A stretch of 64,000 nucleotides of DNA, taken from positions 1 to 64,000 of IMG/VR virus record IMGVR_UViG_3300042868_009074. One strand, 5' to 3'. The position numbers and the translations under genes are program-made. Of this stretch, positions 4,518-32,704 are shown piece after piece. The stretch's first letter is position 1. Every line of letters starts with the position of its first letter. The notes beneath the pieces are model-generated. The model saw only the letters and a list, made by a program, of their open reading frames with translations, did no database searches and was not told the origin of the DNA. This stretch comes from a virus.

Positions 4518-4528
4518 ATTTTAATTAT

Positions 4529-13842: not shown

Positions 13843-14236
13843 AGTTAAAGGTCTCAAAAACCTCTCCGATGTTGTTCTTTCTCAAGTATCTTGGAAAGAC
13901 AAAGCACATTGTAAGACCAAAGAAGTTTCTATATTCTTTGGCAACCCTAAATCTAATGAAACTAATCTAGCTGTTTCTATTTGCAAGTCTTGTTCTGTTA
14001 GACAGGACTGTTTCTATGAGGCTATCCAGTATGGATATGACGGTGTTTGGGGCGGTTCTACTGCTGAACAACGACAGTCTATTATAGATGTAGTTATGGA
14101 ATCTAACATAACTAATCTAACAAAAGAAACATCTAATACTCTACTTTCCTATGTAGACATGATAGGTAAAACCAAAAATTCAGCAACAGCTGATCTTATA
14201 AACATCAAATTATCTGAATTGGATCCAAATGTCTAA
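13826..14236 (+). CDS. whiB: WhiB-like transcription factor
   Basis: 136 residues with the four cluster cysteines: one in A-H-C-K-T near residue 29, then C-K-S-C and C-F-Y-E-A around residues 53-62, followed by Y-D-G-V-W-G-G-S-T. This is the full WhiB [4Fe-4S] layout with the G-[VI]-W-G-G turn. WhiB proteins act with the host primary sigma factor and can repress or activate; phage copies are known to alter host gene expression. An extra C-terminal helix of about 55 residues follows the core. It overlaps both neighbours and lies about 13.7 kb from the other copy at the window start. Confidence 0.93.
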   Translation: MARKFKVKGLKNLSDVVLSQVSWKDKAHCKTKEVSIFFGNPKSNETNLAVSICKSCSVRQDCFYEAIQYGYDGVWGGSTAEQRQSIIDVVMESNITNLTKETSNTLLSYVDMIGKTKNSATADLINIKLSELDPNV

Positions 14237-14939
14237 TAATATTTACAACACTAATGACGATGATATCTTCGATGATTACCAAGAACCTTCTACTTCAACT
14301 GATCCACTCCTTGAAGCTCCTCTTGTTAATGAAGATAAATCATTTGAAAAAGTTTTCTCAGATTTAAATTCTCCATTTGAATCACTCATCCAAAATTCTT
14401 CACTCAAAGTAAACTTTGGGGAAGCTTTCTACAACGCTGCTCATGAGTGGATTATGCAAGGCTATCGTGAAGCTGGCGATATATCTATTATAGATTCACT
14501 TGTTAAAATGAGCGATGGTAAATATCTTTATGAACACCGTCTCAATTGCTCCCGGCAAACTCTAGCTCGTAAAAAAACTGTACTTAAATTTTTGTCTATT
14601 CTCCTAGACAACACAGATGAATCTAACACTATTGTTTCTAATAATACGCATCATGATTTTAATTTCTCTGAAGCTTACTTTAGTATGTTCTTTCGTAGCT
14701 TTTACAATATACAGCTACATACTTTTCATCATGAAACCGCTTTGTATAAAGCTTTGTGTGAAATACTAGAAGTAGAACCAGATCACGATCTTTGTGATCC
14801 AAATGTAGAAACTGTTGCTATTACTAGCACTACAGACTACATTAATACTTTGTATATGCAATACTTCGACAGAGATTCCCTACAGCAGAAAATTGATAAG
14901 TATCTTGAAGAAATTTCCTTTAATAAAAATCAAGCCTAA
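14229..14939 (+). CDS. Acidic protein of unknown function, 236 aa
   Basis: Overlaps the whiB stop by 8 bases. The first 45 residues are highly acidic and Ser/Thr-rich, probably disordered; residues 60-130 include F-Y-N-A-A-H-E-W-I and C-S-R-Q-T-L-A-R-K-K-T, a possible helix-turn-helix-like helical region; the last 100 are helical. No diagnostic motif, so DNA-binding is only a guess. Confidence 0.6.
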   Translation: MSNNIYNTNDDDIFDDYQEPSTSTDPLLEAPLVNEDKSFEKVFSDLNSPFESLIQNSSLKVNFGEAFYNAAHEWIMQGYREAGDISIIDSLVKMSDGKYLYEHRLNCSRQTLARKKTVLKFLSILLDNTDESNTIVSNNTHHDFNFSEAYFSMFFRSFYNIQLHTFHHETALYKALCEILEVEPDHDLCDPNVETVAITSTTDYINTLYMQYFDRDSLQQKIDKYLEEISFNKNQA

Positions 14940-15360
14940 AACAGCTCAACTACTCTTGACTATAGGTAGTGCAGCTGGCTTAGCAGCTATCAATTACACG
15001 ATTATACATAATCCTATTGTATTCGTATTTGTTATGTCTTTATTCTTACATGAATTTGGACATTACTTTATTGCCAGGAAGTATGGCGCTAACGCCGACC
15101 TTCCTTATTTTATCCCTTTATTCCCATTGAATATTGGAATAACAAGAATTAGAAATTTAAAACCCAAACATATTCCAGCTGTTTCTATAGCTGGTCCAAT
15201 GTTTGCTTCTATGTTTTTAATATTCTTTATAATGTTTAATTCTATTTATAGATTATTTGCATTCATGCCATTATTTTTAATTTTAGCTTTTGAAATTATA
15301 TTGAACTATTTTGGTTCTGATGGAAAAAAATATCGTAAATATAATTTACAAACAGTCTAG
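14905..15360 (+). CDS. M50-like membrane metalloprotease
   Basis: The frame is open upstream, but TTG 14905 gives a natural N-terminus (K-K-F-P-L-I-K-I-K-P-K) for a 151-residue protein; a TTG at 14815 is possible. H49-E-F-G-H53 lies at the end of a transmembrane helix, as in site-2 proteases, and N-Y-F-G-S-D-G near the C-terminus supplies the likely third zinc ligand. Several hydrophobic helices flank these. It is a minimal M50 core without PDZ domain. Phage-encoded copies may cleave membrane-anchored regulators; substrate unknown. It overlaps the preceding gene by 35 bases. Confidence 0.75.
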   Translation: MKKFPLIKIKPKTAQLLLTIGSAAGLAAINYTIIHNPIVFVFVMSLFLHEFGHYFIARKYGANADLPYFIPLFPLNIGITRIRNLKPKHIPAVSIAGPMFASMFLIFFIMFNSIYRLFAFMPLFLILAFEIILNYFGSDGKKYRKYNLQTV

Positions 15361-15441: not shown

Positions 15442-15675
15442 ATGAACACAGGCATAAAAAACTACCAAGATAAAATACAATCTTATTTAAACGATTGTTA
15501 TTTTGACATTGGCTCAACTCCTACTGGTAACATTCCTTTTATTCTAGATGAAGCTCATCTAGCTAAGATGTTAACCAGAATAGTGGTGAGTGCAGCCACT
15601 GTTTTAACTACTACATTATCCCTTAAGCAATACTCTAAAGAGATGATCAAACACTATAGAAAGACTAAACTATGA
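15442..15675 (+). CDS. Small protein of unknown function, 77 aa
   Basis: Preceded by TAGGAAC; a GTG ten bases upstream is an alternative start. The second half is a hydrophobic/Thr-rich helix (I-V-V-S-A-A-T-V-L-T-T-T-L) and the end is basic (Y-R-K-T-K-L). It overlaps the next ATG (ATGAG). It may be an accessory of the downstream ubiquitin-like system, by position only. Confidence 0.5.
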   Translation: MNTGIKNYQDKIQSYLNDCYFDIGSTPTGNIPFILDEAHLAKMLTRIVVSAATVLTTTLSLKQYSKEMIKHYRKTKL

Positions 15676-16064
15676 GTTCTTACCCAGAAAAAATTCCAGA
15701 TGGAATTGGATCTATAAATGCTTTTCCATTTTCCTTTACCGCAGGCAAGGATGTCAAGCGTGAGTTAGAATTTCAAGTTGATCAAATCAATTCTCGCATA
15801 GAGAAGATTGTTGAACACTTTGTGTATAACGATATTCCTATAGTCCATTATATTCTCAAGGCTTCCAACCAAAAGAATGATCTTAAAAAGCTGGCTAAAG
15901 CTATTGACAGACTTGCTGACCTTGTCCAAATACAAGAGAACCTTTCTTCTCGCCTTAACATAGTTAAGGTTCTCGAGACTGACTCAGCTTGGTTTGCTTC
16001 AACTTTTTCTGACTATTCTTCTGAATTAGATCAAGACTTAATTAATATCATTAATCACCAGTAG
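15672..16064 (+). CDS. Helical protein of unknown function, 130 aa
   Basis: ATG overlaps the previous stop. Residues 25-110 are predicted as long amphipathic helices (I-E-K-I-V-E-H-F, L-K-K-L-A-K-A-I-D-R-L-A-D-L-V) likely forming a coiled-coil bundle. It ends five bases before the first E2-like gene, so it probably belongs to the ubiquitin-like operon; role unknown. Confidence 0.6.
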   Translation: MSSYPEKIPDGIGSINAFPFSFTAGKDVKRELEFQVDQINSRIEKIVEHFVYNDIPIVHYILKASNQKNDLKKLAKAIDRLADLVQIQENLSSRLNIVKVLETDSAWFASTFSDYSSELDQDLINIINHQ

Positions 16065-16069
16065 GAACT

Positions 16070-17884
16070 ATGACTGTCAATTATTCAATTATTCAATCAG
16101 ACGAAGGTGCTATAGCAGTACAATCTACTGTTCAGTCCTTTAATCTAGACCACATTACTAACAAAGATATTGTTTCTTTTTATACCCGGTTCTCTCAATT
16201 CAGTGCTTGGGATACAGGCATTCTTCCAGTAGACGGAAGTGGTGTTCTATCCATACGTACTGCTGGCGAATACACTCAGTTTGCCTATCAGCATAAACCT
16301 GGTCTTTACCATGTTAACTGGGGTGAATCAGAAGGTGCAGCAGCTGCAGCATACTATCTTGCTCAACCATATCGAATCATTATTTGTGACATGAAAGATG
16401 GCAATCTTCTTGGAGCTAGAATGTTCTACTCCCCATATCCCATAACCAACCCATCTCAGCCACTGTACCATGTTAATCTTCCTAATATTAACTGCAATGG
16501 CTACCGTGGCAATGGTGTTGGCTGGATCTGCCTATACCAAAATGAAGATTGGTCTACTCTTCCACTTAATGAACGGATTGTTCGATTCATTGAACGCTGT
16601 TCAGGTGTAGAAACTTACAACGATGCCAATATGTCAGAGACTGATGGTACTCGTTTTTACAAGAAAAATGATAAACCATCTTATTTCTGGGACCCAGTAG
16701 AATGGGAAACCAAATCCGCCGAAGAAGGATATCAATGGACTCTAGATGAAGATCTTTTGATTCCTGTCCTAGTTAAGTCCATGGACAGTCAGTCTGAGCA
16801 TTGCTCTAACGGTGTTCCCCTAACATTTGCTGATGCTCTTGTAGGAGACTACCAGGCTTACTACTATGACAAAAAGCACACTAAGACCATCAATGCTGTC
16901 ATACGTCCTGATAAAGAATTGGATCCTAAAGAAATCCTTTCTTTCTTTGTAGCTTCTTACAACGGAGCTAATTCCCAAAGTAATCCTTTATTAAATAATA
17001 CTTTTGAATCTTCTGAATTAGTTAAACAAAACGTTGGCTCTGCCACTTTTACTGGTTCAGTATTAACTAACGCTCCTGCAGCTCATGCTTCTCATGAAGA
17101 TTCCCCAGATGTTTATTGTGAGACTTGTGAAAATTACTTTACTCAAGATGATATATCTGGAGACTACTATGGCAATAATGTTTGCACTGGTTGCTTAGAA
17201 GACAGTTTTACCTATATTGAATCTGCTGATGCTTATTTTAATCATGAAGATGAAAATATTATATATATAGAACTTCAGGCTACTTCCTTCCATACTGAAT
17301 TTGACTCAGTTGAGATATGTGAAAACTGCAATCAAGCATACGGTAAAGAAGGAAAGAATAACCCTCCTGACAAAGTCATTTGTTTAGATAACAATGACAA
17401 CGTTTGCCCTAAGTGCATTGAGAACTATGCTTACGATAAAGGTATTTCTACTGGGACTTGTGTTTCTTGTGCTAAGTTTGTTGTTACTGAACCAGATTTT
17501 TCTCATCATTACCTCAGCACTCACATTAGTCTTCCATATTATGACTATGAGACTAACGAATCATCGTCAGACGTTAAAGTAGTAACATTCTGTTCTTCTT
17601 GTCAAGACAAACTGCTGATATGTCCATGTGGATTGGTTAAATCTAAATCTTTAGAAGATTTCAATCCTTGTACCCCAATACAATCTGGCACAGGTGAAGA
17701 TGCTATTTCTATAGATAAAGCTTGTGTCTCCTGTGTCAACTTTACCTTTCATGACTCAGAAGAGTTAGAAGCAAATTTTGTTCCTGTATCAATCAGTAAT
17801 TTTACAAATTATCAGAATCAACTTACTTCTATTACTTCAATCCATCAAGGTTTTCAGAAAACTGTAGATGAAGAACCATTTTAA
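16070..17884 (+). CDS. E2-like protein fused to a multi-Cys zinc-binding region (604 aa)
   Basis: The N-terminal ~310 residues contain V-N-L-P-N-I-N-C then G-W-I-C154-L-Y, equivalent in layout to the P-N...G-x-C-L motif around the catalytic Cys of Prok-E2/PRTRC-B proteins, and to the two E2-like proteins at 24982 and 26334. The C-terminal ~250 residues carry many Cys pairs (C-E-T-C, C-T-G-C, C-E-N-C, C-P-K-C, C-V-S-C, C-S-S-C, C-P-C, C-V-S-C), i.e. several treble-clef or RING-like zinc knuckles. This looks like an E2 joined to an E3-like scaffold. The family link is by motif and context, not full-length similarity. Confidence 0.65.
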   Translation: MTVNYSIIQSDEGAIAVQSTVQSFNLDHITNKDIVSFYTRFSQFSAWDTGILPVDGSGVLSIRTAGEYTQFAYQHKPGLYHVNWGESEGAAAAAYYLAQPYRIIICDMKDGNLLGARMFYSPYPITNPSQPLYHVNLPNINCNGYRGNGVGWICLYQNEDWSTLPLNERIVRFIERCSGVETYNDANMSETDGTRFYKKNDKPSYFWDPVEWETKSAEEGYQWTLDEDLLIPVLVKSMDSQSEHCSNGVPLTFADALVGDYQAYYYDKKHTKTINAVIRPDKELDPKEILSFFVASYNGANSQSNPLLNNTFESSELVKQNVGSATFTGSVLTNAPAAHASHEDSPDVYCETCENYFTQDDISGDYYGNNVCTGCLEDSFTYIESADAYFNHEDENIIYIELQATSFHTEFDSVEICENCNQAYGKEGKNNPPDKVICLDNNDNVCPKCIENYAYDKGISTGTCVSCAKFVVTEPDFSHHYLSTHISLPYYDYETNESSSDVKVVTFCSSCQDKLLICPCGLVKSKSLEDFNPCTPIQSGTGEDAISIDKACVSCVNFTFHDSEELEANFVPVSISNFTNYQNQLTSITSIHQGFQKTVDEEPF

Positions 17885-17916
17885 TAAAATAAAAACAAAT
17901 CTTTATAAGGAGATTT

Positions 17917-19572
17917 ATGTCTAACGATACTAAGGAAATAAAAACCATCACTTTAGATGATTTAAATTACTTTTGGATGCCTAACGGTGCTCCATGCTTT
18001 ATCGCCAATAACTATGATGTTGTTGATGATTACTGCGATACTGTTGAAAGTTTTGGCTTTCAAATTTATTATATCATAACCGATAAAGAAACAAGTAAAA
18101 CTGTTCAAGTCAAAAACGACAAAGGAGTTATGATTCCAACTGAAGTATATGATTATACTCCAGCTGTATTTAAAGTTGTTAATAACTTTACAGGTCGTGC
18201 CGTCATGGAATCCAAAGAACCTTTCGGTACTTCATTCTGCCCAGTAAAAGAAGTAGCAGAGTATACTATGCCTTCAATTCCTCGGATTATTATCGATAAA
18301 CTTGATGAGTTCTTTAGATTAGTTCATGCTCAGCATGGCACTGAGTCTATTGTTATCTTGACTTATGATACCACTAAAGAAGGTTCTGAAGGTTGGGGCG
18401 TCTTAGTCCCCGAGCAAGAGAACAACTCTGTTCACTGCAAGTATGACAATGATTCTATTGCTGCTATTAAACCAGATCATGTCATGATTGTTGGCTCTGT
18501 CCACAGTCATCCTGAGATGTCGGCATATGCTTCTGGTACAGACCATGAAGACCAAGCTGACTTTGATGGCATCCATATTACTTATGGCTGGCAAAAATCA
18601 GTTAATGCTGGAGCTACCCAGTATCACTTGGAGCTTCAGATTGGTGGTTCTAACTATGTACTCAAACCTGAAGATGTATTTGAATACAACCCTCCTCCCA
18701 CTAAGGACCCTGACCCAGAGGTTCTAGAGTGGAGCTCTAAAGTAAAAAAAGTATCCCCCCCGCTTATGGGGGTTTCGGGTACTCAGGTGGCGCATACACC
18801 AAGCCAGTCGTACCAGGCAAGTTGGGCTCTTCAAGCGACCAACTCTCGACCTATTCAAGCTGGTATGGATACGATTAGTTCTTTCGATAGAACTAAATTC
18901 ATATCTGACCTAGGTACAGTTGAAGCAGATGCTGTAGTTGCTATAGAAATAGATGATTCAACTAATCCAGATCGCAACTGCTTGATCTGTTATTTTCCTC
19001 TAACTTTAGCTGATCTCAACACTGGCTTCTGCATGACTTGTGATACTCCTATAATCACTCCAGAAATGGGTCATAGAGATATTCTAGCATTCCTAGACTA
19101 TTACTGTGACCAACGTGCTTTGGATCCTACAGTTCCTTATTATGTTTACTGCATGGATGAAAATAATAATTCAAATAACTTTTTGATTAATATTAAATCT
19201 GCTGGTCAAATTTCTAATCTAGAAGATCCTGAAGTAGAATTATATTCTGGTGCTGACTTTCTAGAGTATACAGTTTGCTGCAGTACGCCATTAACTATGG
19301 TGGAACTGTGCAAGTGCACTGTTACTGTCTTAGAGGAACACGTTGCTGACTTTGACAAAGCACACAAGGAAGTAGACATCTATGATTCTACTGACGACTG
19401 CTTGTCATGTGATAGTTATTATCAAACTTCATGTCCTCAATTTAAAAATGCTTTAGTTAATTATGTAACTTATAATTCTATTGTAAATGTTCAAATAAAA
19501 AAATGCGACAACTATGTCTATTATAAAGACTTAACTGCCGTCAATAATTTCGAAAGTACTTATTATGACTGA
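17917..19572 (+). CDS. JAB/MPN (JAMM) metallo-isopeptidase with zinc-finger tail
   Basis: 551 residues. A perfect JAMM signature is present: H196-S-H198, seven residues, S206-x-x-D209, giving the zinc ligands of deubiquitinases and of PRTRC protein A; a Glu upstream in the strand before W-G-V-L is the likely catalytic base. A Pro-rich linker (about 275-305) leads to a C-terminal half with Cys pairs (C-L-I-C, C-M-T-C, C-C-S-T, C-K-C, C-L-S-C) for zinc. It should cleave the ubiquitin-like protein from conjugates or mature it. Good site AAGGAG. It overlaps the E1 gene by 8 bases. A candidate frameshift signal lies between the two halves (18744). Confidence 0.9.
   Translation: MSNDTKEIKTITLDDLNYFWMPNGAPCFIANNYDVVDDYCDTVESFGFQIYYIITDKETSKTVQVKNDKGVMIPTEVYDYTPAVFKVVNNFTGRAVMESKEPFGTSFCPVKEVAEYTMPSIPRIIIDKLDEFFRLVHAQHGTESIVILTYDTTKEGSEGWGVLVPEQENNSVHCKYDNDSIAAIKPDHVMIVGSVHSHPEMSAYASGTDHEDQADFDGIHITYGWQKSVNAGATQYHLELQIGGSNYVLKPEDVFEYNPPPTKDPDPEVLEWSSKVKKVSPPLMGVSGTQVAHTPSQSYQASWALQATNSRPIQAGMDTISSFDRTKFISDLGTVEADAVVAIEIDDSTNPDRNCLICYFPLTLADLNTGFCMTCDTPIITPEMGHRDILAFLDYYCDQRALDPTVPYYVYCMDENNNSNNFLINIKSAGQISNLEDPEVELYSGADFLEYTVCCSTPLTMVELCKCTVTVLEEHVADFDKAHKEVDIYDSTDDCLSCDSYYQTSCPQFKNALVNYVTYNSIVNVQIKKCDNYVYYKDLTAVNNFESTYYD
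18744..18775 (+). promoter_or_regulatory. Candidate -1 ribosomal frameshift signal inside the JAB gene
   Basis: A-AAA-AAA (18744-18750) stands in the correct phase for a slippery heptamer (codons GTA AAA AAA GTA). It is followed after about four bases by CCCCCC...GGGGG, a GC-rich hairpin in otherwise AT-rich DNA. A -1 shift would add roughly 55 codons and stop near 18913, giving the JAMM domain without its zinc tail. Prediction only. Confidence 0.35.
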
Positions 19573-20320
19573 TCAAAAACGTTTTGTTCTTGTTGGAGCT
19601 GGTGGCATTGGCACTTGGCTTGCAGCTGGACTTGCTCGCATGTTAGAGTTTAAATATCCTGGCTCTGCTCTTATTATCGTCGATGGTGATACATATGAAG
19701 AACGGAACAAAGAGCGTCAATCATTTTCTCAGATGGGAAACAAAGCAGTTGCTACTGCCCATGACTTGACCCAACAGTTTCCTAACACTATGTTTATCCC
19801 AGTCCCTAAATGGGTTGTTGACGACAACTTTGGTGGAGTCACAGATGATCAAGATTCTCCTAAAATTAAAGCTTCTGCTTTGATTACCGAAAACGATGTA
19901 GTCTTTGCTGTTGTTGACAACTTTGCTGCTCGTAAGATTATCTTTGATGCTGCTCAAAACTTAGACAACGTTGACATCTTTACTGGTGGCAACGATGACG
20001 CTTTATTTGGTAGTGTTTATCATTACCAACGCCGTGATGGTCACGATGTAACTGACCATCCAGTGCATACTCATTCTGAATATGAAAATCCTCCAGACAA
20101 AAATCCTGGTGAATTATCATGTCAAGATCGTGCCAAAATCGAAGGTGGTACTCAGCTATTGGCTACCAATATGGCTGTAGCTGCCTTCCTTCTTGGTCGC
20201 GTACAAAAGACAATTGTGTCTAATCAAAATCCCGACGAAGCAGAAATTTATTTTGACCTTGGTATCGGCAAGTCCGAACCATATGATCGTCGACCAACCC
20301 TACAACCTGTAGTACAATAA
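19565..20320 (+). CDS. E1-like ThiF-fold adenylating enzyme (PRTRC-ThiF type)
   Basis: 251 residues. The nucleotide loop is G11-A-G-G-I-G16; V-D-G-D42 binds the ribose, and R47-N48...R51-Q52 supply the adenylation residues. The only cysteine, C186 in E-L-S-C-Q-D, is the candidate thioester Cys, followed by E-G-G-T-Q and T-N-M-A-V-A-A-F, an arrangement I know from PRTRC ThiF proteins. It should adenylate the C-terminal Gly of the ubiquitin-like protein encoded 14 bases downstream and pass it to an E2-like protein. Shorter than eukaryotic E1, typical for bacterial forms. Confidence 0.88.
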   Translation: MTDQKRFVLVGAGGIGTWLAAGLARMLEFKYPGSALIIVDGDTYEERNKERQSFSQMGNKAVATAHDLTQQFPNTMFIPVPKWVVDDNFGGVTDDQDSPKIKASALITENDVVFAVVDNFAARKIIFDAAQNLDNVDIFTGGNDDALFGSVYHYQRRDGHDVTDHPVHTHSEYENPPDKNPGELSCQDRAKIEGGTQLLATNMAVAAFLLGRVQKTIVSNQNPDEAEIYFDLGIGKSEPYDRRPTLQPVVQ

Positions 20321-20334
20321 AGGAGATAACAGTT

Positions 20335-20592
20335 ATGACTGCTATGAATAATACCGGAGGAGCAGCACAGTCTGCTTCTGGCCAAATGGCAAATGTCCGT
20401 TTTGGCGTTTACACTCAACCAGCACCAGTTGCTGGAAAGACTGTTCGCGAAGTTCGCGAGCAGTTCTCAAAGCTTTGGGGAATACCTTCTGATGCAGTAG
20501 CATACAAGGGTAAAGACAAGCTCGATGAGGATACTGTTATCGGTGCATCTGATAACGTAGAGTTCCACCGCCGTGCTGGCGAAAAGGGTTAA
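20335..20592 (+). CDS. Ubiquitin-like beta-grasp protein ending GEKG (Prok_Ub / PRTRC-C type)
   Basis: 85 residues: a Gly/Ala/Ser-rich, probably flexible N-terminal tail (1-22), then a beta-grasp pattern: strand R-F-G-V-Y, helix T-V-R-E-V-R-E-Q-F, K-G-K-D-K-L-D-E-D, and a last strand V-E-F-H-R-R ending A-G-E-K-G. PRTRC protein C, as I remember it, ends in a similar F-R-R-x-x-G-T-K-G. The terminal Gly is therefore exposed without processing. A strong AAGGAG site and C-ending codons suggest abundance, and a terminator follows directly, so it is the last gene of the JAB-E1-Ubl transcript. Confidence 0.82.
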   Translation: MTAMNNTGGAAQSASGQMANVRFGVYTQPAPVAGKTVREVREQFSKLWGIPSDAVAYKGKDKLDEDTVIGASDNVEFHRRAGEKG

Positions 20593-20614
20593 TTTAACTC
20601 TTCCCTAAATCTGA

Positions 20615-20662
20615 GGGAGAGTATGCTTAACTTACTTTGAGTGTACTCTCCCACTTTTTTTC
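20615..20662 (+). terminator. Intrinsic terminator after the ubiquitin-like gene
   Basis: GGGAGAGTA (20615-20623) pairs perfectly with TACTCTCCC (20644-20652), followed by A-C and a run of eight T. It separates the JAB-E1-Ubl genes from the AAA ATPase gene, perhaps only partially, since the latter has no obvious own promoter. Confidence 0.85.
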
Positions 20663-20695
20663 AAAGCCACCAGTTACTAATCAAGGTTTATATTA

Positions 20696-22312
20696 ATGCT
20701 TTTTTCTCAAATAAAATTAGGTCATCCAACTTTATGGATTAAATCTATAGATTCTTTTAAGACTATAGAATCTATTGTAAATTATCCATCTAGAATTTAT
20801 TTTACATTAGATCCAGTTAAAGGTTTTTGTGAATATAAAAACCAAACTTGGAAACCAGTATTGGTAGACATGCCAAACCCAGATGATCCTGGTACAACTA
20901 TTAAAAAAACTACTTTTGATTTTGTAGTTGCAAACGAATTCCTTTCTACTTACCTAGAAGATAAGCCAAAGACATTTATATTTAACATCTTTGCTCAAGC
21001 TCAAGAGTTTGTAGGAAGTTATGCTGGCTTATTTAACCACGCTATGATGCAGTATCGTGATGCCTTTTGGACTAATGATTTATCTGAAATGCCTCTTCAG
21101 TATATTGTTACATCCCCATTTGATTGCCCTGAAGAATTTGCACACTTGTTTAAATTCGTAGAAATGGGCTATCCTTCTTCTGAAGAACTAACATCAGTTC
21201 TTTCTCATATCTCTACCTCTTCTGACGGTCAGTTAGTTAAGCCAGAGACAGTAAAAGATATTGTCAATGCCGGACTTGGTTTATCTGAGTCTGAGTTTAT
21301 CAACTTATCTTTACAATCTGTTTTAGAATGTGGCGAAGTATCTTCTGAATATATTTATTCTCAGAAGATGAGCGACATGAAGAAGAACGGCATACTTGAA
21401 ATCATCAAGCCTAAAGTTCACTTTCAAAATATTGGTGGCCTTGATGCCATTAAAGATTTGATTATACGTAATGCTAATCTATGGCATAACCCAGAACAAG
21501 CTGCTAAGTTTGGTATTTCTCCAATCCGTCGCATGCTTATGGTTGGGGTTCCAGGTACTGGCAAGTCAGCTATCTGTGAAGCTACTGCTAATGCCCTGGG
21601 TTTGGACCTAGCTCGTACTGGCATTAGCCAGGTAATGAACTCTTACATTGGTCAATCAGAGCAGAATATGCGTACTGTATTTAAACAAATCAATGCAATG
21701 GCTCCACTTTGTGTTTGGATCGATGAGTTTGGTCGAGATCTATCCGGTGGCTCCAGCTCGTCTCATGTAGATGGTGGCACTACAGACCGTGTCCACGGAG
21801 AGTTCCTTACAGGCCTTCAGGAGCTTCCTGACAACGTATTCTTGATGTGTGCAGCTAATCAGCTAGAACACCTTAAACCAGAGATGCTTCGTGCAGATCG
21901 TTTCGATAAGATTATGTTTGTAGGCTTGCCTTCATTTAGTGAGCGTTCTGATATTATTAAAATATATCTTTCCGACATTGACACAGATCATGTGTATAAT
22001 TATGATGCGATTTCTCATGCTACTCAGTATTTTACTGGTGCTGAGATCAAGTCTCTTATTAAGGAAGTTAAATTTTACGTTAGTTCTTCAGAACTTCGTG
22101 CAATCAATACCAATGATGTAGTTTCTTATGCTCCTAAAATGAGAAACATTCTTTGGAATAAAAGTCGTCCAATGATTCAAGACCTCTACAAAACAGCTAT
22201 AGATCAATGGGATTGGGCATCGACGGATCAGTTCGAAGATGCTAAACTTATAATGAACCCCAATCGTTCTACAGCACCTGTTTCAGCCCCTAAAATACCA
22301 GTATTTAAATAG
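20696..22312 (+). CDS. AAA+ ATPase, Ycf46-like
   Basis: 538 residues. The first ~235 residues resemble the N-terminal domain of Ycf46-type ATPases (predicted alpha/beta, possibly a decayed nucleotide fold). F-Q-N-I-G-G-L begins the AAA core; Walker A is G-V-P-G-T-G-K290-S, Walker B C-V-W-I-D-E344, then an Asn sensor 1 in C-A-A-N-Q and an arginine-finger region R-A-D-R-F-D. Such single-ring AAA proteins act as unfoldases or remodelers. Placed among E1, Ubl, JAB and E2-like genes, it may act on tagged proteins; this role is inferred from position only. Confidence 0.88.
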   Translation: MLFSQIKLGHPTLWIKSIDSFKTIESIVNYPSRIYFTLDPVKGFCEYKNQTWKPVLVDMPNPDDPGTTIKKTTFDFVVANEFLSTYLEDKPKTFIFNIFAQAQEFVGSYAGLFNHAMMQYRDAFWTNDLSEMPLQYIVTSPFDCPEEFAHLFKFVEMGYPSSEELTSVLSHISTSSDGQLVKPETVKDIVNAGLGLSESEFINLSLQSVLECGEVSSEYIYSQKMSDMKKNGILEIIKPKVHFQNIGGLDAIKDLIIRNANLWHNPEQAAKFGISPIRRMLMVGVPGTGKSAICEATANALGLDLARTGISQVMNSYIGQSEQNMRTVFKQINAMAPLCVWIDEFGRDLSGGSSSSHVDGGTTDRVHGEFLTGLQELPDNVFLMCAANQLEHLKPEMLRADRFDKIMFVGLPSFSERSDIIKIYLSDIDTDHVYNYDAISHATQYFTGAEIKSLIKEVKFYVSSSELRAINTNDVVSYAPKMRNILWNKSRPMIQDLYKTAIDQWDWASTDQFEDAKLIMNPNRSTAPVSAPKIPVFK

Positions 22313-22324
22313 ATAGGATAAATA

Positions 22325-22966
22325 ATGTCAGATGAAGTAATGAATTCCGTACAGGAATTCTTAACACAATTAGATGATGATTCAAATTCACCAGAGCAAG
22401 TATTCTCTAGTGACAACAAAGATTATGAAAATGATCTTTACAAGAAATGGTTTCGCTCTAAGAGCCAGAGTGGATTTTTATCCATTCGTCCTTGGTTCAC
22501 CGGAATGAAATTTAAAATTGATATTGGCAAAACTTCTCCAGATGGAAAGTTGATTAGCCATACTCATCTTTATGTAGACGCTGTAGACTTTGCGGCTTAC
22601 CTTCGTGCTATTGTACAGGGCAACGCTGCTTCTATATTCCCAGCAAATGATCGCATGGGGATTCCATCTCCAGAAGGTTTTGCTTCCTATGGTGGATCTA
22701 AGGTAGAAGGTAAAGCTATCTCTCGCATCTTTAAGGCCCACCACTGGACTAATGGTGACACAGTAGACCCTAACGCTTTCGTCTGGAAGTCTGGTCATTT
22801 TGCAGCAAGAGTCTCTGACACTGGTGCATTTATACCTGATATGAAGTCTCCTTTATCTGTCGACTCCATTAAAGTTACTCGTCAAGATATCTGTTCTATA
22901 TCTTATATTTTAGATTTAGCTCTTAATTCTTATGTAGCTAACAATCAGAGCTGGTACGAGGTTTAA
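22325..22966 (+). CDS. Protein of unknown function in the ubiquitin-like locus, 213 aa
   Basis: AGGATAAATA precedes ATG 22325. Residues 1-35 are acidic; then a beta-rich stretch (F-L-S-I-R-P-W-F-T-G-M-K-F-K-I-D-I-G) with H-T-H-L-Y-V-D follows. No zinc motif and no cysteine cluster. It lies 12 bases after the AAA gene and is most likely co-transcribed. A substrate adaptor or DNA-binding role is possible, but nothing in the sequence decides. Confidence 0.6.
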   Translation: MSDEVMNSVQEFLTQLDDDSNSPEQVFSSDNKDYENDLYKKWFRSKSQSGFLSIRPWFTGMKFKIDIGKTSPDGKLISHTHLYVDAVDFAAYLRAIVQGNAASIFPANDRMGIPSPEGFASYGGSKVEGKAISRIFKAHHWTNGDTVDPNAFVWKSGHFAARVSDTGAFIPDMKSPLSVDSIKVTRQDICSISYILDLALNSYVANNQSWYEV

Positions 22967-22967
22967 T

Positions 22968-23345
22968 ATGACTGAAGAAAATACTACATCTGTTTTTACA
23001 GTTGATCAATTGAAGGAATACGTAGAATCTTTATTCGTTAACTTTTCTCAAATGATTGATGAGAAGTTTGACGAAATAGATAAAAAAGTAGAAGCTTTTG
23101 AAAAGCAAATAGCAACTCTGGTTATTGGCTTTGGTGAACAAGCTGTCTTTCTTGAGGCTTTGCTAGCCCAACTATCTTTTGCTACTGAAGATGAACAAAA
23201 AGCTTTTCAAACTAACGTTGGAGAAGCTAGAAAACAAATGCTGAAAGTGATGAAAGATGGATCTGAAAACCTCGTGGCCGGTGAGAATGAAAGACTTGCC
23301 TCAGCCATTAATGACGTGGTTAATTCAAAGTCAGCTGAGCTCTGA
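22968..23345 (+). CDS. Coiled-coil protein, 125 aa
   Basis: Starts one base after the previous stop region. Residues 5-60 show heptad-like spacing (V-D-Q-L-K-E-Y-V-E-S-L-F; F-D-E-I-D-K-K-V-E-A-F-E-K-Q-I) and residues 85-120 a second helical stretch. Probably an oligomerisation or adaptor protein. It overlaps the next frame. Confidence 0.6.
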   Translation: MTEENTTSVFTVDQLKEYVESLFVNFSQMIDEKFDEIDKKVEAFEKQIATLVIGFGEQAVFLEALLAQLSFATEDEQKAFQTNVGEARKQMLKVMKDGSENLVAGENERLASAINDVVNSKSAEL

Positions 23346-23544
23346 AAATAACGGACACTGCGTACTATTCGTAGATCCTCATTCAATTGATTTAATTAAA
23401 GATATATCTAACCTATCTCAGGTATATCCTTTAGTTAAGTCTATGTACCCAGATATGACATCTTTGCATGTCGTATCATTTCCTATAAAGCAATTTATAG
23501 AGAACAAAACTTTATCCTTCCACTCAGTAAAGGCTGTATTATGA
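23287..23544 (+). CDS. Small protein of unknown function, about 85 aa
   Basis: The frame is open from 23257; ATG 23287 with GGTGAG upstream is my preferred start, overlapping the coiled-coil gene by 59 bases. The distinct part begins near its residue 21 (N-N-G-H-C-V-L-F-V-D-P-H-S-I-D-L), an alpha/beta-like pattern. A shorter product starting after the overlap cannot be excluded because no later ATG gives the strand H-C-V-L-F-V-D. Confidence 0.45.
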   Translation: MKDLPQPLMTWLIQSQLSSENNGHCVLFVDPHSIDLIKDISNLSQVYPLVKSMYPDMTSLHVVSFPIKQFIENKTLSFHSVKAVL

Positions 23545-24188
23545 TAATTTCTTCTATTGATACTCTTGATCAATTAAATGCAATTTCTTATTCTCAATTT
23601 TTAGAATCTGATCTTATTACTTTTAATTTAATTTCTGCTTATGTTATTAATAATAATTTGTATTCAAATTTGCGGGCCGCCCTACAAATAGAATCTTATT
23701 CAGATTATTCCCTTAGATTAATCGACGATAATCCAGAGAGTACTTACTCTGCTGAAACTCTTGCTACATTTGAGACTTATGCTCCATTAGCTGATGGAGT
23801 TAATTATTACTTCTATCCTTATTCTATTAAAGAATTTACTTCTCAATTCTTTTCTGGGCTTGTTCCCACACTTGCCGAGTCAATTATTTCCTTAATGAAA
23901 TCAACTGGTAGAATCACTCAAATTGGTGGAGGATCAGGTAAGGCTATTATTATAAAGACCCAGTTAATGACTGACGTTCATTTTCAGTCCATTCCTAAGA
24001 CAGTTTCTCCTCAAGAATCTATTCTTGGCATAACTGATGCTCTTTCTTCTTTGACTTCTTACGTTAAAAACAATGAATATCTTTATGACGTTATCGCTCA
24101 AAAAGATCAATTGATAATTGCCCTTCGCGAAGAAGTAAATCAACTTAATAATAAAGTTGTGTCCGTTTATCAAACTACTTGGAGGTAG
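23541..24188 (+). CDS. Protein of unknown function, 215 aa
   Basis: ATG overlaps the previous stop (ATGATAA context). The product is rich in Ser, Tyr and Asn, with a G-G-G-S-G-K-A-I-I-I segment near residue 133 that is not a true P-loop (no downstream Walker B), and a helical C-terminal third (residues 170-210) that could be a coiled coil. Member of the ubiquitin-like gene run. Confidence 0.55.
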   Translation: MIISSIDTLDQLNAISYSQFLESDLITFNLISAYVINNNLYSNLRAALQIESYSDYSLRLIDDNPESTYSAETLATFETYAPLADGVNYYFYPYSIKEFTSQFFSGLVPTLAESIISLMKSTGRITQIGGGSGKAIIIKTQLMTDVHFQSIPKTVSPQESILGITDALSSLTSYVKNNEYLYDVIAQKDQLIIALREEVNQLNNKVVSVYQTTWR

Positions 24189-24191
24189 ATC

Positions 24192-24974
24192 ATGCAATTT
24201 GTAGTAGACCCCAATATGGAGATGACTCCTTCTAATATCTATCAAATGCTTTACAGTTATCGGGATACTCTGTTCTATGCTGCTCTTGATTCTGAGCATC
24301 GTCAAGTTGTAGATGTTGCCATTCAGGTTACTGAAAAAGGTCATCACCCAAAAGACGCTCTATTCCATAAAGCCTATAAGACTTTGTGTAAAATTTTTAA
24401 TGTAGATTTTGGCCCACAATCTTTTGCTCAAGTTTTCTTAACTCCTTCATCTGAAGTTTTAAATTCTGGTCCACAAAAAAAGCCACTTAAAAACTACATT
24501 GCCTGCACTAGTTACAGTTGTGGTTCCAACTTGTCTAACGACTACGAATACGCTAATGCTGTTGAGTTTGCTTCTTGTTCTAATTCATCTGTTCCTGGGA
24601 TGTATTGCATTGCAGCCACCTGCCAAACACAGTGTCCTGTTTATCAGGCAGACCAATCTCTATATGCTTCTTACCAGTTCTCCCACGATGATATCAACTA
24701 TGATTATACCGTCCATACTTACAGGCACATCTATGGAGATATACACTATCAGATTTTTGATCAAGATAATAATTTGATTAATGAATTAAAATTTGATTCA
24801 TTAACTCATTTGTCTATAGACCCCAATGAACTTTCTAATGAACTTAAGTCAATAGTCAAAGAAGTTCATCATAATATTTTTTATTCTGAATCTTTTCCTT
24901 TATCAGAACTACAATCTGAACAAGAAATTTCTCAAGATAATAAGAAATCATATTTAGCTACACTAATTTCCTAG
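24192..24974 (+). CDS. Cys-rich protein of unknown function, 260 aa
   Basis: Excellent ribosome site TTGGAGG before ATG 24192. A helical N-terminal third is followed by a Cys cluster at about residues 95-150 (A-C-T-S-Y-S-C-G, A-S-C-S-N, M-Y-C-I-A-A-T-C, Q-C-P-V-Y), suggesting zinc or disulfides, then a beta-rich Tyr/His segment and an acidic tail. It precedes the second E2-like gene by 7 bases. Not recognised. Confidence 0.6.
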   Translation: MQFVVDPNMEMTPSNIYQMLYSYRDTLFYAALDSEHRQVVDVAIQVTEKGHHPKDALFHKAYKTLCKIFNVDFGPQSFAQVFLTPSSEVLNSGPQKKPLKNYIACTSYSCGSNLSNDYEYANAVEFASCSNSSVPGMYCIAATCQTQCPVYQADQSLYASYQFSHDDINYDYTVHTYRHIYGDIHYQIFDQDNNLINELKFDSLTHLSIDPNELSNELKSIVKEVHHNIFYSESFPLSELQSEQEISQDNKKSYLATLIS

Positions 24975-24981
24975 GAATAAA

Positions 24982-26337
24982 ATGTCACATAACTATTCTG
25001 TTTTAGATGAACTTTTCGTCAAAAATTTACAATTCAACATAGACCTTCAACCTTTAATTAGTAGCAACAGTAAAATGGACACTGTCCCCCCTGCTTTGGC
25101 TTCTTTGATTCTCTCTAAATCAATTGAGCAATCTTGGGCTCCTAGTAATTACTACAACTCTAATATTGTAGCTAACGAATTGCAAACTGTTTTTCCTTTT
25201 CTTTCTGAAATAACTTATAACGTTAGTCTTACTTCTCATTACTTAGATGATCTTAAGAGCAAGAATTCTATAAAGTATGACAAATCATTCTTTAACACTT
25301 TTGCTCCTATAGCTGTTAGGTATACTAATGGCAGCAATATGTGGTTGATTGAGCGTCCTCCTTTTCAAGCCAATATTACCTACAGGGCTGCTGGTTCTAA
25401 CAGAATAGGCAAAGAAGTTTCCTATTCTATCTGGATGCCGTGGACTGTTATGTTTTTAGATGTTCGTCCAGAGCAGTCTTTCTATGATGCCTACTTGTAT
25501 TTTAATGATGGTCCTATTAGTTCTTTAGACGATGTTGCAGTTCCTTGTTTCTTTCCAAATATGTATGGCGACGGCAGGATGTGTTTAAATCAATCTGGTG
25601 TTATGTTGCAACAGCATCTGTCTCAAACTAATTCCTTCGATATCGCTACTATATATAATTTTCTTATTAATGATTACATGTCTGGTGGATGGAACTTAGA
25701 TTTAGGTATTCAGAATTTTGATAGAATTAGAAATCTTACTCAATTAACTAAGCAGTCTTATAGTCAAATAGTTCATGGTATTCCTAATGACAAAAACTAC
25801 CCCTCTTCTGTTTCTCCTAAAACTGGAAGAATTATACTTAAAAAGTATGTAAGTAATTTCTTAAATTATTTTTCTTTGTCTCCTATGAATTTAGTTTTAG
25901 ATCTCGTAACTTCCGTTAAACAACAAAAAGTACGTGACTTTAAAACTTATGCTCAATTAATTGAATCTCATGAAGATACCGCTTCTCCTGTTAATTCTCT
26001 TCTTTCTAGCTATAACACTGGTTCTCCGAGCATACTTCAGTCTTACAGGCTTCTTGTTTCTCCCAAGTTCTGCACTAGAGAAGTACTACATGATGATCCT
26101 CTTACCGATTATGCCAAGGTAGCTAAATCTATTATAGCTGTATTGGATGATCACCTTAAAGATAGTCTTCAAGATATTCTTACAACTACAGATCAATATA
26201 AGGTTATACAATCTTTTCAGACTGAGAATCCAATTCTATACATTGAAAATGAAGATACTGTGTTTATAGTAGATGAGAACTCTTCTGAGGAATTTTTCAA
26301 GCAGCTTATTGGCATTAAAGAAACGGCATCGTTATGA
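24982..26337 (+). CDS. E2-like protein (Prok-E2/PRTRC-B type), 451 aa
   Basis: Residues 118-205 carry the recognisable core: W-L-I-E-R-P-P, W-M-P-W-T-V-M-F-L-D-V-R-P, and C-F-F-P-N-M-Y-G-D-G-R-M-C201-L. A Pro-Asn followed by D-G and a Cys matches the catalytic region of bacterial E2-like (UBC-fold) proteins of PRTRC systems. The remaining ~200 residues are helical and unknown. It should accept the ubiquitin-like protein from the E1-like enzyme on C201 and pass it on. The gene directly overlaps the third E2-like gene; the two share the core layout but not length. Confidence 0.62.
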   Translation: MSHNYSVLDELFVKNLQFNIDLQPLISSNSKMDTVPPALASLILSKSIEQSWAPSNYYNSNIVANELQTVFPFLSEITYNVSLTSHYLDDLKSKNSIKYDKSFFNTFAPIAVRYTNGSNMWLIERPPFQANITYRAAGSNRIGKEVSYSIWMPWTVMFLDVRPEQSFYDAYLYFNDGPISSLDDVAVPCFFPNMYGDGRMCLNQSGVMLQQHLSQTNSFDIATIYNFLINDYMSGGWNLDLGIQNFDRIRNLTQLTKQSYSQIVHGIPNDKNYPSSVSPKTGRIILKKYVSNFLNYFSLSPMNLVLDLVTSVKQQKVRDFKTYAQLIESHEDTASPVNSLLSSYNTGSPSILQSYRLLVSPKFCTREVLHDDPLTDYAKVAKSIIAVLDDHLKDSLQDILTTTDQYKVIQSFQTENPILYIENEDTVFIVDENSSEEFFKQLIGIKETASL

Positions 26338-27500
26338 TTCAAGCTTCACTATTATCTACTAAGTCTCGCCAGTATTGGAATGACAATAGCACTTTAAAGA
26401 ACCTTAGTGCTAACAACGAGTATTCCGATCCTTCCGACACTAATAACCCTAAGGCAGCACTTTCTTTTGTTAATAGCTTAAATGATAAGAACGTAGATTC
26501 TGGCTTACTTCCTCCCGGGGTAAGGGTTTTTCTTCCTGGTTTCGTGATTTTTGAGCGTCCTCCTTCTATGCAGATGGTTCAGTACATTGATGCTAATGTT
26601 GACTCCATAAGAGAATACGAGGACAGCGGTTCTTTCTATGAAGATGGTGATTCTGAATCTGGCGAGTATCACGAAGAATTGAATTCTTATTCACTTCGTA
26701 TACCCGTTCCTTGGCAGTTATACATGGCCACATACAGCACCAATCCTGCTTCTATGTATAGAGTTACCAGTATTCGTATGTATTTTATGAATACACCTTT
26801 AAATCATCCCGACGTTGAATTGTATGCTCCATATGTAAATAATTTCTTTACAGACGGATCCTTATGTACTCCTATGTTTGATACTATAGATGAGATAGAC
26901 AGATATCCTCAAAATCTTGCTGGAGTTATTGCTTCTGCTTATGATTGGATCTGGAACACTGGCTTCAATGCTGATCTCAAGGAATGCATAGACATTAATT
27001 TTAATCATAATATTGCTCGTAAGAATCCTGTCATTAAGGACTTTCTTACTAAGTATGGAATACGTGAATATAAACCAGAACTTAGCAGATACGCTGCTTT
27101 TTATGATTATATGTCTCAACTTTCTGTCACTGATATAATAAATTTAGAGTGGGCTAGTCCTTCATACGGTCATCATTTTGATATGGATAAAGAGTTTCTG
27201 TTTTTAAATGATGAGGCTTTATTGGCGGAATTTCATGATTCCGAGTATTATAATCCTGATTCCGATGATGAGTACTATGATTTTAAACGCTTTCTTCCTG
27301 ATGTTAGTCAGATTAGCAAAACATACTCTAACATAATAGACTCTATGTTCTTTTCTAGAAGGACTAGAAGTATGGTTCGTGGGATTTATTCTGACTTAAC
27401 TGCTAAAAACAATATAGTCCTCAGCAGTCCTTCTTATTTTTGTCAGTCTTTGGCAAATCATATTCAATCTAATCCTTCTATTCTAGTTGATTCACTCTAG
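26334..27500 (+). CDS. E2-like protein (Prok-E2/PRTRC-B type), 388 aa
   Basis: ATG overlaps the upstream stop by 4 bases. The core reads F-L-P-G-F-V-I-F-E-R-P-P, R-I-P-V-P-W-Q-L-Y-M, and A-P-Y-V-N-N-F-F-T-D-G-S-L-C178, parallel to the 451-aa neighbour (E-R-P-P, P-W, P-N..D-G..C). After the Cys comes W-I-W-N-T-G-F-N-A-D-L, recalling the F-x-x-S-x-F-T-H stretch of PRTRC-B proteins. An acidic insert (95-115) interrupts the domain. Likely a paralogue diverged to work with different targets. Final gene of the run. Confidence 0.62.
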   Translation: MIQASLLSTKSRQYWNDNSTLKNLSANNEYSDPSDTNNPKAALSFVNSLNDKNVDSGLLPPGVRVFLPGFVIFERPPSMQMVQYIDANVDSIREYEDSGSFYEDGDSESGEYHEELNSYSLRIPVPWQLYMATYSTNPASMYRVTSIRMYFMNTPLNHPDVELYAPYVNNFFTDGSLCTPMFDTIDEIDRYPQNLAGVIASAYDWIWNTGFNADLKECIDINFNHNIARKNPVIKDFLTKYGIREYKPELSRYAAFYDYMSQLSVTDIINLEWASPSYGHHFDMDKEFLFLNDEALLAEFHDSEYYNPDSDDEYYDFKRFLPDVSQISKTYSNIIDSMFFSRRTRSMVRGIYSDLTAKNNIVLSSPSYFCQSLANHIQSNPSILVDSL

Positions 27501-29723: not shown

Positions 29724-30182
29724 ATGAGCAAAAAAGCTTCCATGGAAGAACGTTTCTTTGAAAAAGTTAATAAAACTGATTCTTGTTGGCTTTGGACTGG
29801 TTCCCTAACTTCTCGTGGTTATGGATGTTTGGGCGTTGCTGGTAAAACTACTGCAGCTCATAGATATTCTTATCAAATCCATACCGGAGAAATTCCAGAA
29901 GGTTTAATAATCTGTCATAGCTGTGATGTTCCATCGTGCGTAAACCCTGACCATTTATGGGCTGGCACTTATGCCGACAACATGAAGGACATGGTAAAGA
30001 AAGACAGACATGGGGAATCCAGTAGAAAGAAAACTCATTGTAGAAAAGGTCATTCTTTTGAGGAATTTGAACCCCTTGTATATATTAAGAAACAAGGCAG
30101 ACAAGCTGGAAAAGAATATAGAACTTGTAGAGAATGCAAGCGTATAAGCGATTATAACTACTATACTAAAAACAATAAATAA
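29724..30182 (+). CDS. HNH endonuclease (HNH_3 type, homing-like)
   Basis: 152 residues. C-W-L-W-T-G-S and G-Y-G form the N-terminal part, A-H-R-Y-S-Y the first conserved His, then I-C-H-S-C-D-V-P-S-C-V-N-P-D-H-L-W the Cys-containing beta-beta-alpha metal finger, and N-M-K-D-M the trailing helix. A C-terminal C-R-K-G-H ... C-R-E-C zinc knuckle follows. This is the standard free-standing phage homing endonuclease; no intron is visible next to it. It probably promotes its own spread. It sits 7 bases before tRNA-Arg. Confidence 0.92.
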   Translation: MSKKASMEERFFEKVNKTDSCWLWTGSLTSRGYGCLGVAGKTTAAHRYSYQIHTGEIPEGLIICHSCDVPSCVNPDHLWAGTYADNMKDMVKKDRHGESSRKKTHCRKGHSFEEFEPLVYIKKQGRQAGKEYRTCRECKRISDYNYYTKNNK

Positions 30183-30189
30183 ATTTCTA

Positions 30190-30261
30190 GCCTTTATAGT
30201 TAAATGGATATAACAAGAAACTTCTAATTTCTCGTTCTAGGTTCGATTCCTAGTGGAGGCA
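30190..30261 (+). tRNA. tRNA-Arg (anticodon TCT)
   Basis: Acceptor GCCTTTA (30190-30196) pairs with TGGAGGC (30254-30260) with two G-U pairs; discriminator A30261. Stem AGAAA/TTTCT encloses C-T-T-C-T-A-A, anticodon TCT. T arm CTAGGTTCGATTCCTAG is canonical; the D arm is AT-rich. It reads AGA, the dominant Arg codon of an AT-rich genome. Confidence 0.92.
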
Positions 30262-32095: not shown

Positions 32096-32704
32096 ATGAC
32101 CACTATAATTGCAATTCAAGGGCCAGACTATGCCCTGGTGTGTAGCGATTCTAGAATATCTAGCATGGACGAAGGTGGCTTTACATCCCAGATCACAACA
32201 TTAGGTTCTAACTCAGCTAAAGTAGCAGAGAACAATAAGTATCTATTAGGTGCTGCCGGCGACATGAGAGCTATTAATATACTGCATCATGCTTTTACCC
32301 CACCTATTCCTCCTGTTGGGACTACTGGTAAGAAGTTAGATAACTTTATCACTACTAAGTTTGTTCCATCATTAAGAGAATGCTTTGAGAAACAAGGTTA
32401 TGCGTCTCCTGAGAATGAATCATCTACACATATAGCACAGCATGAATCTACTATTTTGACAGTAGTATCTGGTAACATCTATATTATTGATGGCGACTAT
32501 TCTTGGACTTCAGATGTTAATGGCATTTATGCTATTGGCACTGGCAGTTACTATGCACTGGGTGCTCTACAAGTTCTGTGTTCAACAAAAATAGCGACAC
32601 CAGCTCAAGCTAAAAAGAATGCTTTAAAAGCTATTGCCATATCGGCTAAATACGATCCATATACCGGTGGACCATTCCACTGTTATATTCAGGAAAAATC
32701 TTAA
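32096..32704 (+). CDS. Proteasome/HslV-like Ntn-hydrolase
   Basis: 202 residues starting M-T-T-I-I-A-I; removal of Met leaves Thr1, the nucleophile. D18 (Asp17 after maturation) in C-S-D-S-R, a Lys in S-A-K42-V in the place of Lys33, G-A-A-G-D near residues 53-57, then G-T-G-S-Y-Y-A-L-G-A-L (the Ser129/Gly region) and Y-D-P-Y-T-G-G-P-F near the end match the beta-type proteasome subunit and HslV fold in order and spacing. The Lys is about nine residues later than usual. It has no propeptide, like HslV. With the AAA ATPase and ubiquitin-like system, it could form a degradation machine; no HslU-like partner is seen nearby. Good site GGGGAAA. Confidence 0.8.
   Translation: MTTIIAIQGPDYALVCSDSRISSMDEGGFTSQITTLGSNSAKVAENNKYLLGAAGDMRAINILHHAFTPPIPPVGTTGKKLDNFITTKFVPSLRECFEKQGYASPENESSTHIAQHESTILTVVSGNIYIIDGDYSWTSDVNGIYAIGTGSYYALGALQVLCSTKIATPAQAKKNALKAIAISAKYDPYTGGPFHCYIQEKS

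What the first reader, a model, noticed from the sequence alone, without database searches (positions are those of the whole stretch)
16070..27500. Apparently complete ubiquitin-like conjugation system encoded by a phage
Within one plus-strand run are a JAMM isopeptidase (H196-x-H198-x7-S206-x2-D209), an E1-like ThiF protein with a single Cys, a beta-grasp protein ending GEKG, and three different proteins with a Pro-Asn...Gly-x-Cys E2-like core, plus a Ycf46-like AAA+ ATPase and unknown partners. Bacterial PRTRC loci hold one E2-like protein, one E1, one Ubl and one JAB; I know of no phage set with three E2-like paralogues and zinc-knuckle fusions. It could tag host or phage proteins (for example to inactivate defence or redirect the host proteasome).
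Basis: partly seen in the sequence, partly recalled or inferred. Interest (0 to 1): 0.93.

Follow-up and report, generated by a model that had tools for sequence, protein, structure and literature searches.

The report
Phage-encoded ubiquitin-like tagging system
A group of large lake-water phages carries a fixed set of genes that looks like a complete ubiquitin-type protein-tagging pathway (the tag, its activating enzyme, at least two and probably three transfer enzymes, a tag-removing protease and an unfolding motor); to our knowledge no phage has been described with one, and it has not been tested in the laboratory.

Summary
Window 16070-27500 encodes an E1-like ThiF protein, a JAMM peptidase, a small protein predicted to have the ubiquitin fold, a Cdc48/PAN-type AAA+ ATPase and three E2-like proteins, all on one strand. 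The same genes in the same order occur in about 26 distinct viral genotypes. E2b (451 aa) and E2c (388 aa) are supported as relatives of Prok-E2_D/PRTRC_B by profile comparison; a fourth paralogue in a divergent relative (L238) passes Pfam's Prok-E2_D cut-off. The 604-aa E2a is weaker: linked through E2c, no E2 fold found for its AlphaFold model. The Ubl tail is invariant G-E-K-G, with two extra residues in three genotypes, so JAMM processing is likely. It resembles plasmid PRTRC loci but fails membership: scores far below equivalog cut-offs, no ParB found, extra E2s plus AAA+. Most likely it reversibly conjugates the Ubl to proteins during infection, with fast-diverging E2s setting targets. 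A proteasome/HslV-like subunit lies 4.6 kb downstream, but it is common in other phages and missing in some carriers, so a degradation pathway is possible, not shown.

The parts
16070..17884 (+). E2a: E2-like protein, residues 1-290 core (C154, also invariant C142 and C177), C-terminal tandem Cys pairs (Zn-binding, IBR/zinc-ribbon-like)
   Evidence: core profile matches E2c profile E=6.4e-7, decoys >=0.026; C154 invariant 31/31; IBR_1 only E 0.043/0.016; AF2 pLDDT 76, no E2 hit in PDB
17917..19572 (+). JAMM/JAB isopeptidase with N-terminal domain and C-terminal Cys-rich region
   Evidence: Prok-JAB 2.1e-5; PRTRC_A 1.5e-4; hhalign to cyanobacterial PRTRC-A-like 5.5e-6; E143/H196/H198/S206/D209 invariant
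19565..20320 (+). E1-like ThiF adenylyltransferase, single invariant Cys C186
   Evidence: ThiF 7.3e-14; PRTRC_ThiF 3.6e-7; hhalign to PRTRC ThiF 1.9e-10; catalytic residues invariant
20335..20592 (+). Ubl, ubiquitin fold, C-terminus RAGEKG
   Evidence: AF2 + Foldseek: ubiquitin/FAT10/NEDD8, prob 1.00; GEKG invariant in 26 sequences, +2 residues in three
20696..22312 (+). AAA+ unfoldase-type ATPase (phrog_8638 clade, Cdc48/PAN-like), pore loop Y/F-I/V-G
   Evidence: AAA 4e-24, CDC48 8e-32, PAN 2.6e-31, phrog_8638 1.4e-66, pore loop
22325..22966 (+). conserved 213-aa protein always next to the AAA+ (unknown role)
   Evidence: present in all loci that reach it, incl. L238
22968..23345 (+). conserved 125-aa, probably coiled-coil protein
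23257..23544 (+). conserved 95-aa protein, start overlaps previous gene in another frame
23541..24188 (+). fast-evolving 215-aa module protein
   Evidence: mean pairwise identity 0.20; position conserved
24192..24974 (+). fast-evolving 260-aa module protein
   Evidence: position conserved, weak match in L238
24982..26337 (+). E2b: Prok-E2_D/PRTRC_B-like, active-site candidate C201, N193-x7-C201
   Evidence: hhalign to PRTRC_B set 8e-6, decoys >=0.18; C201 invariant 28/28
26334..27500 (+). E2c: Prok-E2_D/PRTRC_B-like, active-site candidate C178, N170-x7-C178
   Evidence: hhalign to PRTRC_B set 3.6e-7, to E2b 1.4e-17, decoys >=0.13; invariant E74 P76 P77 P126 W127 N170 C178 N212 D214 in 40 E2b+E2c
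15672..16064 (+). conserved 130-aa gene directly upstream of E2a, probably same unit
32096..32704 (+). proteasome/HslV-like peptidase subunit (N-terminal Thr after Met, D18, K42); possible downstream partner, not exclusive to the module
   Evidence: PF00227 6.1e-7 above cut-off; phrog_1040 HslV family 6e-24; residues invariant; with E1 in 17 of 20 records

Best explanation
A phage-encoded ubiquitin-like conjugation pathway related to, but distinct from, plasmid PRTRC systems. The JAMM peptidase trims the pro-Ubl where needed to end in ...GEKG; the E1 adenylates the C-terminal Gly and passes it (perhaps through C186) to the cysteine of E2-like proteins (C178 and C201, probably C154); these attach it to selected phage or host proteins; JAMM can remove it; the neighbouring AAA+ engages tagged proteins to unfold or remodel them. 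The E2s diverge fast and so probably set target choice, while E1 and Ubl stay nearly fixed. Shown: gene set, synteny, invariant catalytic residues, family relationships, predicted ubiquitin fold. Inferred: thioester relay, protein targets, AAA+ coupling, role in infection.
For: Catalytic residues of E1, JAMM and the E2 cysteines invariant across about 26 genotypes. Ubl model matches ubiquitin/FAT10/NEDD8. E2b/E2c match PRTRC_B at 8e-6 and 3.6e-7 against column-shuffled decoys no better than 0.13, with the Cys aligned; 10 of 40 members hit Pfam Prok-E2_D and no other family hits more than one; a fourth paralogue in L238 hits Prok-E2_D at 9.3e-9 above cut-off and bridges to E2b/E2c. N-x7-C spacing as in UBC enzymes (UBC comparison from general knowledge). 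Pro-forms GEKGSL/GEKGNI in three genotypes. E1, JAB and AAA+ scans return nearly the same contigs and gene order is constant. Identity: E1 0.73, Ubl 0.68 versus E2b 0.22, E2c 0.27.
Against: No biochemistry. E2b/E2c structures not predicted; E2a model gives no E2 match and E2a aligns only to E2c, in that alignment not reaching the Cys. Ubl shows no sequence-profile match to PRTRC_C. No recognised E3. No substrate evidence.
Confidence: 0.75

Rival explanations
1. The cascade feeds a phage degradation machine: Ubl-tagged proteins are unfolded by the AAA+ and cut by the phage proteasome/HslV-like subunit, giving a viral ubiquitin-proteasome pathway.
For: AAA+ of Cdc48/PAN type with aromatic pore loop; proteasome-like subunit with Thr/Asp/Lys triad 11-16 kb downstream of E1 in 17 of 20 records.
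Against: The subunit is widespread in viral contigs without E1 and absent from several module carriers (G007, G039, G040, G044, G046, G047, G050, G051) and from L238's contig, some of these fragments. AAA+ C-termini carry no conserved HbYX motif.
Confidence: 0.3
2. The Ubl is a sulphur carrier (ThiS/MoaD/Urm1-like) for cofactor or tRNA thiolation, and the E2-like proteins have other roles.
For: E1 is ThiF-like; eight tRNA genes in the window.
Against: No rhodanese or sulphurtransferase recognised in the module; tail is K-G not G-G; paralogous proteins with invariant Cys in the Prok-E2_D family and a JAMM travel with it.
Confidence: 0.08
3. The system tags one fixed partner in a regulatory loop, like Cap2/Cap3 with CD-NTases, rather than many targets.
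For: Bacterial E1/E2/JAB defence operons work this way (PMC10097602, PMC11153139); the module holds several unknown conserved partners that could be the substrate, such as the 213-aa protein.
Against: Multiple diverging E2s and a free Ubl suggest more than one substrate; CBASS models match only the Rossmann part of the E1, weakly.
Confidence: 0.25
4. A virion-assembly module like lambda TAPI/TAPK.
For: Both pair a Ubl with a JAB (PMC1779556).
Against: Neighbours are SSB, UDG and helicase genes, not tail genes; E1 and E2-like proteins are present.
Confidence: 0.04

Closest known systems
PRTRC systems of plasmids (operon type 6d of Iyer et al. 2006, PMC1779556)
   Same: JAB with N-terminal domain, ThiF-type E1 with aligned Cys, free Ubl ending G-x-K-G in several PRTRC_C proteins, Prok-E2_D-type E2
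   Different: phage has three or four E2-like paralogues per locus, Zn-rich extensions on E2a and JAB, an AAA+ ATPase, no ParB/PRTRC_E/PRTRC_F match, scores far below equivalog cut-offs, and no Ubl profile match
Type II CBASS Cap2/Cap3 and the 6A-6C E1-E2-JAB operons
   Same: E1, E2 and JAB acting together
   Different: E1 and E2 are separate genes here, a free Ubl is present, no nucleotidyltransferase; carried by a phage as a lineage-wide module
Lambda TAPI/TAPK tail assembly (type 5 in PMC1779556)
   Same: phage Ubl plus JAB
   Different: no E1/E2 in the lambda cluster; here not among tail genes
phrog_8638 AAA+ ATPases of isolated phages (Dylan, SM1, L338C, RcMenchie, JP1)
   Same: homologous AAA+ ATPase
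   Different: those neighbourhoods gave no E1, Ubl, JAB or E2 match; the ATPase sits next to other small genes
Phage proteasome homologues PPH/AAH (PMC8665760) and the HslV-like gene of Actinomycetia phage DSL-LC01
   Same: proteasome/HslV-like subunit with N-terminal Thr
   Different: no E1 of this type found in annotated phages

Membership tests
PRTRC system | PRTRC_ThiF equivalog (cut-off 144.75 bits) | tested here: not met
   29.8 bits, E 3.6e-7; homologous by hhalign 1.9e-10
PRTRC system | PRTRC_A JAB equivalog (cut-off 101.8 bits) | tested here: not met
   21.4 bits
PRTRC system | PRTRC_B E2-like protein (cut-off 131.45 bits) | tested here: not met
   no equivalog-level hit; remote homology only; L238 E2d 21.2 bits
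PRTRC system | PRTRC_C Ubl (Pfam Prok_Ub) | tested here: not met
   no Pfam hit, hhalign E 0.2-0.3; real PRTRC_C proteins hit Prok_Ub
PRTRC system | ParB next to the cluster | tested here: not met
   none among the module and flanking proteins scanned; whole genome not scanned
Prok-E2_D (PF14460) family, proteins E2b/E2c/E2d | match above Pfam gathering score | tested here: inconclusive
   met by L238 E2d (35.7 vs 25 bits); window E2b/E2c below it, 10/40 homologues weakly hit; profile-profile match far beyond decoys
Prok-E2_D (PF14460) family, E2a | profile match and UBC fold | tested here: inconclusive
   matches E2c 6.4e-7 but PRTRC_B only 0.023; no fold match
Ubiquitin-like beta-grasp proteins | ubiquitin fold with C-terminal Gly | tested here: met
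   (predicted fold, model pLDDT 76)
JAMM isopeptidases | E, H-x-H-x7-S-x2-D | tested here: met
E1-like (ThiF) superfamily | adenylation residues and ThiF family match | tested here: met
Ubiquitin-like conjugation system | Ubl-protein isopeptide conjugates | not testable with these tools
   needs biochemistry
Proteasome/HslV-like peptidases (ORF 32096) | PF00227 cut-off and Thr1/Asp17/Lys33 | tested here: met
   29.7 vs 22.4 bits; residues invariant in 9

The most novel reading that the evidence does not exclude
The phage encodes a whole viral ubiquitin-proteasome pathway: a cascade with several target-specific E2s plus a dedicated unfoldase and a phage proteasome-like peptidase, used to destroy or remodel host and phage proteins during infection.
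Probability: 0.25. Interest if true: 0.95.

Novelty: new variant of a known kind. Interest (0 to 1): 0.86.

Why it matters
Prokaryotic E1-E2-Ubl-JAMM sets are known from bacteria and plasmids, and recent work shows bacteria using them against phages. Here such a set is a fixed part of a phage lineage, with an expanded E2 family like that of eukaryotes. If active it would be a viral tagging system, give a route to the unknown function of PRTRC systems, and offer a small model for how one E1/Ubl comes to serve several E2s.

Tried and rejected
E1 against annotated phages: no match. E1 in bacterial/archaeal genomes: only one remote 27% hit. E2a model against PDB folds: nothing. Profiles of E1, E2c and JAB against PDB sequences: nothing or marginal (JAB best hit an archaeal Rpn11-like protein, E 0.068). 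Ubl sequence against PRTRC_C and PDB: nothing significant. HbYX at the AAA+ C-terminus: not conserved. Module match to PRTRC_E/F: none. ClpP in nine records: none. Simple E2 motif as evidence: rejected, expected 0.7 per window by chance. Literature: no phage-encoded Ubl conjugation system found, but most subscription journals are not held. RING identification of the Zn regions: only weak IBR/zinc hits.

Full report
What is there. The window is the first 64 kb of a 267,766-bp virus record. Curated models identify a ThiF E1 (7.3e-14), a Prok-JAB domain (2.1e-5, just under cut-off) and an AAA+ ATPase (4e-24); NCBIfam gives distant PRTRC_ThiF and PRTRC_A matches; no curated model hits the E2-like cores or the Ubl of the window itself.

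Is it more than chance? Scans of viral contigs with the E1 gave 39 loci; scans with JAB and with the AAA+ gave nearly the same contigs. Wherever the contig is long enough the order is the same: 130-aa gene, E2a, JAB, E1, Ubl, AAA+, 213-aa, 125-aa, 95-aa, 215-aa, variable gene, E2b, E2c, HTH, SSB, UDG (the HTH gene was not recognised in L011). Relatives sit in contigs of up to about 216 kb, and the longest ones tested have a terminase match. The only relative found with A1 in bacterial/archaeal genomes was a remote one, and annotated phages gave none.

E1, Ubl, JAMM. In 26 E1s the residues that match MoeB R73, K86 and D130 (named in PMC12355090) are invariant (R51, K60, D118), as is C186, which aligns with the PSCS cysteine of plasmid PRTRC ThiF proteins. 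The Ubl was predicted by AlphaFold from 25 homologues (pLDDT 76) and Foldseek returned ubiquitin, FAT10, NEDD8, parkin Ubl and ISG15 with probability 1.00 and E from 2.7e-4. Its GEKG is invariant; three genotypes carry two more residues (GEKGSL, GEKGNI), as expected of a precursor. Several PRTRC_C proteins also end G-x-K-G, though no profile similarity was found otherwise. JAMM residues E143, H196, H198, S206, D209 are invariant.

E2-like proteins. Profiles built from the phage families were compared with true PRTRC_B proteins fetched from plasmids. E2c matches at 3.6e-7 and E2b at 8e-6; the other phage families (E2a aside, at 0.023) give nothing below 0.03 and 80 column-shuffled decoys nothing below 0.13. 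The cysteine is aligned in both. Over 40 E2b/E2c sequences down to 12% identity nine positions are invariant, among them N170 and C178, eight residues apart as in the HPN...C core of UBC enzymes (general knowledge). Prok-E2_D is hit by 10 of 40 members at E<=0.1 and no other family by more than one. A divergent relative, L238, keeps the whole module and adds a fourth paralogue that passes the Prok-E2_D cut-off (9.3e-9) and links E2b/E2c (2.4e-10) with PRTRC_B (7.9e-8). E2a is different: its core matches E2c (6.4e-7; 7.4e-7 to E2b+E2c) but PRTRC_B only at 0.023, its AlphaFold model (pLDDT 76) finds no E2 in the PDB, and C142 and C177 are as invariant as C154. I treat E2b and E2c as E2-like with good confidence and E2a as probable.

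Zinc regions. E2a's C-terminus and the JAB C-terminus are Cys-rich (12 invariant Cys in JAB). The E2a tail is absent in L011 and a separate Cys-rich gene in L012/L013. They could be adaptor or E3-like parts; that is inference.

How it most likely works. E1 activates the Ubl, E2s transfer it, JAMM matures and removes it, and the AAA+, with an aromatic pore loop and Cdc48/PAN similarity, acts on tagged proteins. E1 and Ubl are far more conserved (0.73, 0.68) than E2b and E2c (0.22, 0.27), which fits a fixed tag with changing targets. Adjacent SSB and UDG genes and an upstream helicase place the module in the replication region; some PRTRC loci also adjoin replication genes (ssb in L069, holA in L073). 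Targets are unknown.

Degradation arm. ORF 32096-32704 is a proteasome/HslV-like subunit above the Pfam cut-off, beginning MTT with conserved D18 and K42. It lies 11-16 kb downstream of E1 in 17 of 20 records but is also common in viral contigs in which no E1 was found (many are fragments) and missing from other carriers. It may be an independent phage gene.

Known or new. The nearest known system is PRTRC. By its equivalog models and lack of ParB this is not a PRTRC locus, though it shares its parts. Phage E1+E2+Ubl+JAMM sets were not found in the papers that can be searched here; this is not proof of novelty. I call it a new variant of a known kind.

Noticed in passing
window 32096-32704: Proteasome/HslV-like subunit with intact Thr-Asp-Lys triad; common in viral contigs and 46% identical to one in Actinomycetia phage DSL-LC01 (lake water).
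   Followed up: yes
G000:C1:208000-267766 (L026-L029): The last ~60 kb of the record is colinear with the first ~51 kb at mostly 72-86% DNA identity where alignable, and relatives are ~210 kb; the record is probably a chimera of two related phages.
   Followed up: partly
L238 (contig IMGVR_UViG_3300020202_000062): Divergent module with four E2-like proteins; its JAB is split into two ORFs (2839-4068, 4284-4712).
   Followed up: yes
window 22968-23544: Two conserved genes overlap by ~88 bases in different frames, and do so in most relatives.
   Followed up: no
window 14815-15360: M50-type membrane metalloprotease-like ORF (HExxH, Peptidase_M50 1.2e-5, below cut-off) just upstream of the module.
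   Followed up: no
window 13826-14236: WhiB-like regulator (7e-14), which points to an actinobacterial host.
   Followed up: partly
window 35274-36017: ORF that reads like a kinase fused to a nicotinamide-nucleotide adenylyltransferase-like domain (GRYQPWHDGH motif), judged by eye only.
   Followed up: no
window 29724-30182: HNH-endonuclease-like ORF (judged by eye) beside tRNA-Arg(tct) at 30190.
   Followed up: no
G000:C1:183604-184765: Terminase match is in two pieces with a TGA inside one; could be an intron, frameshift or error.
   Followed up: no
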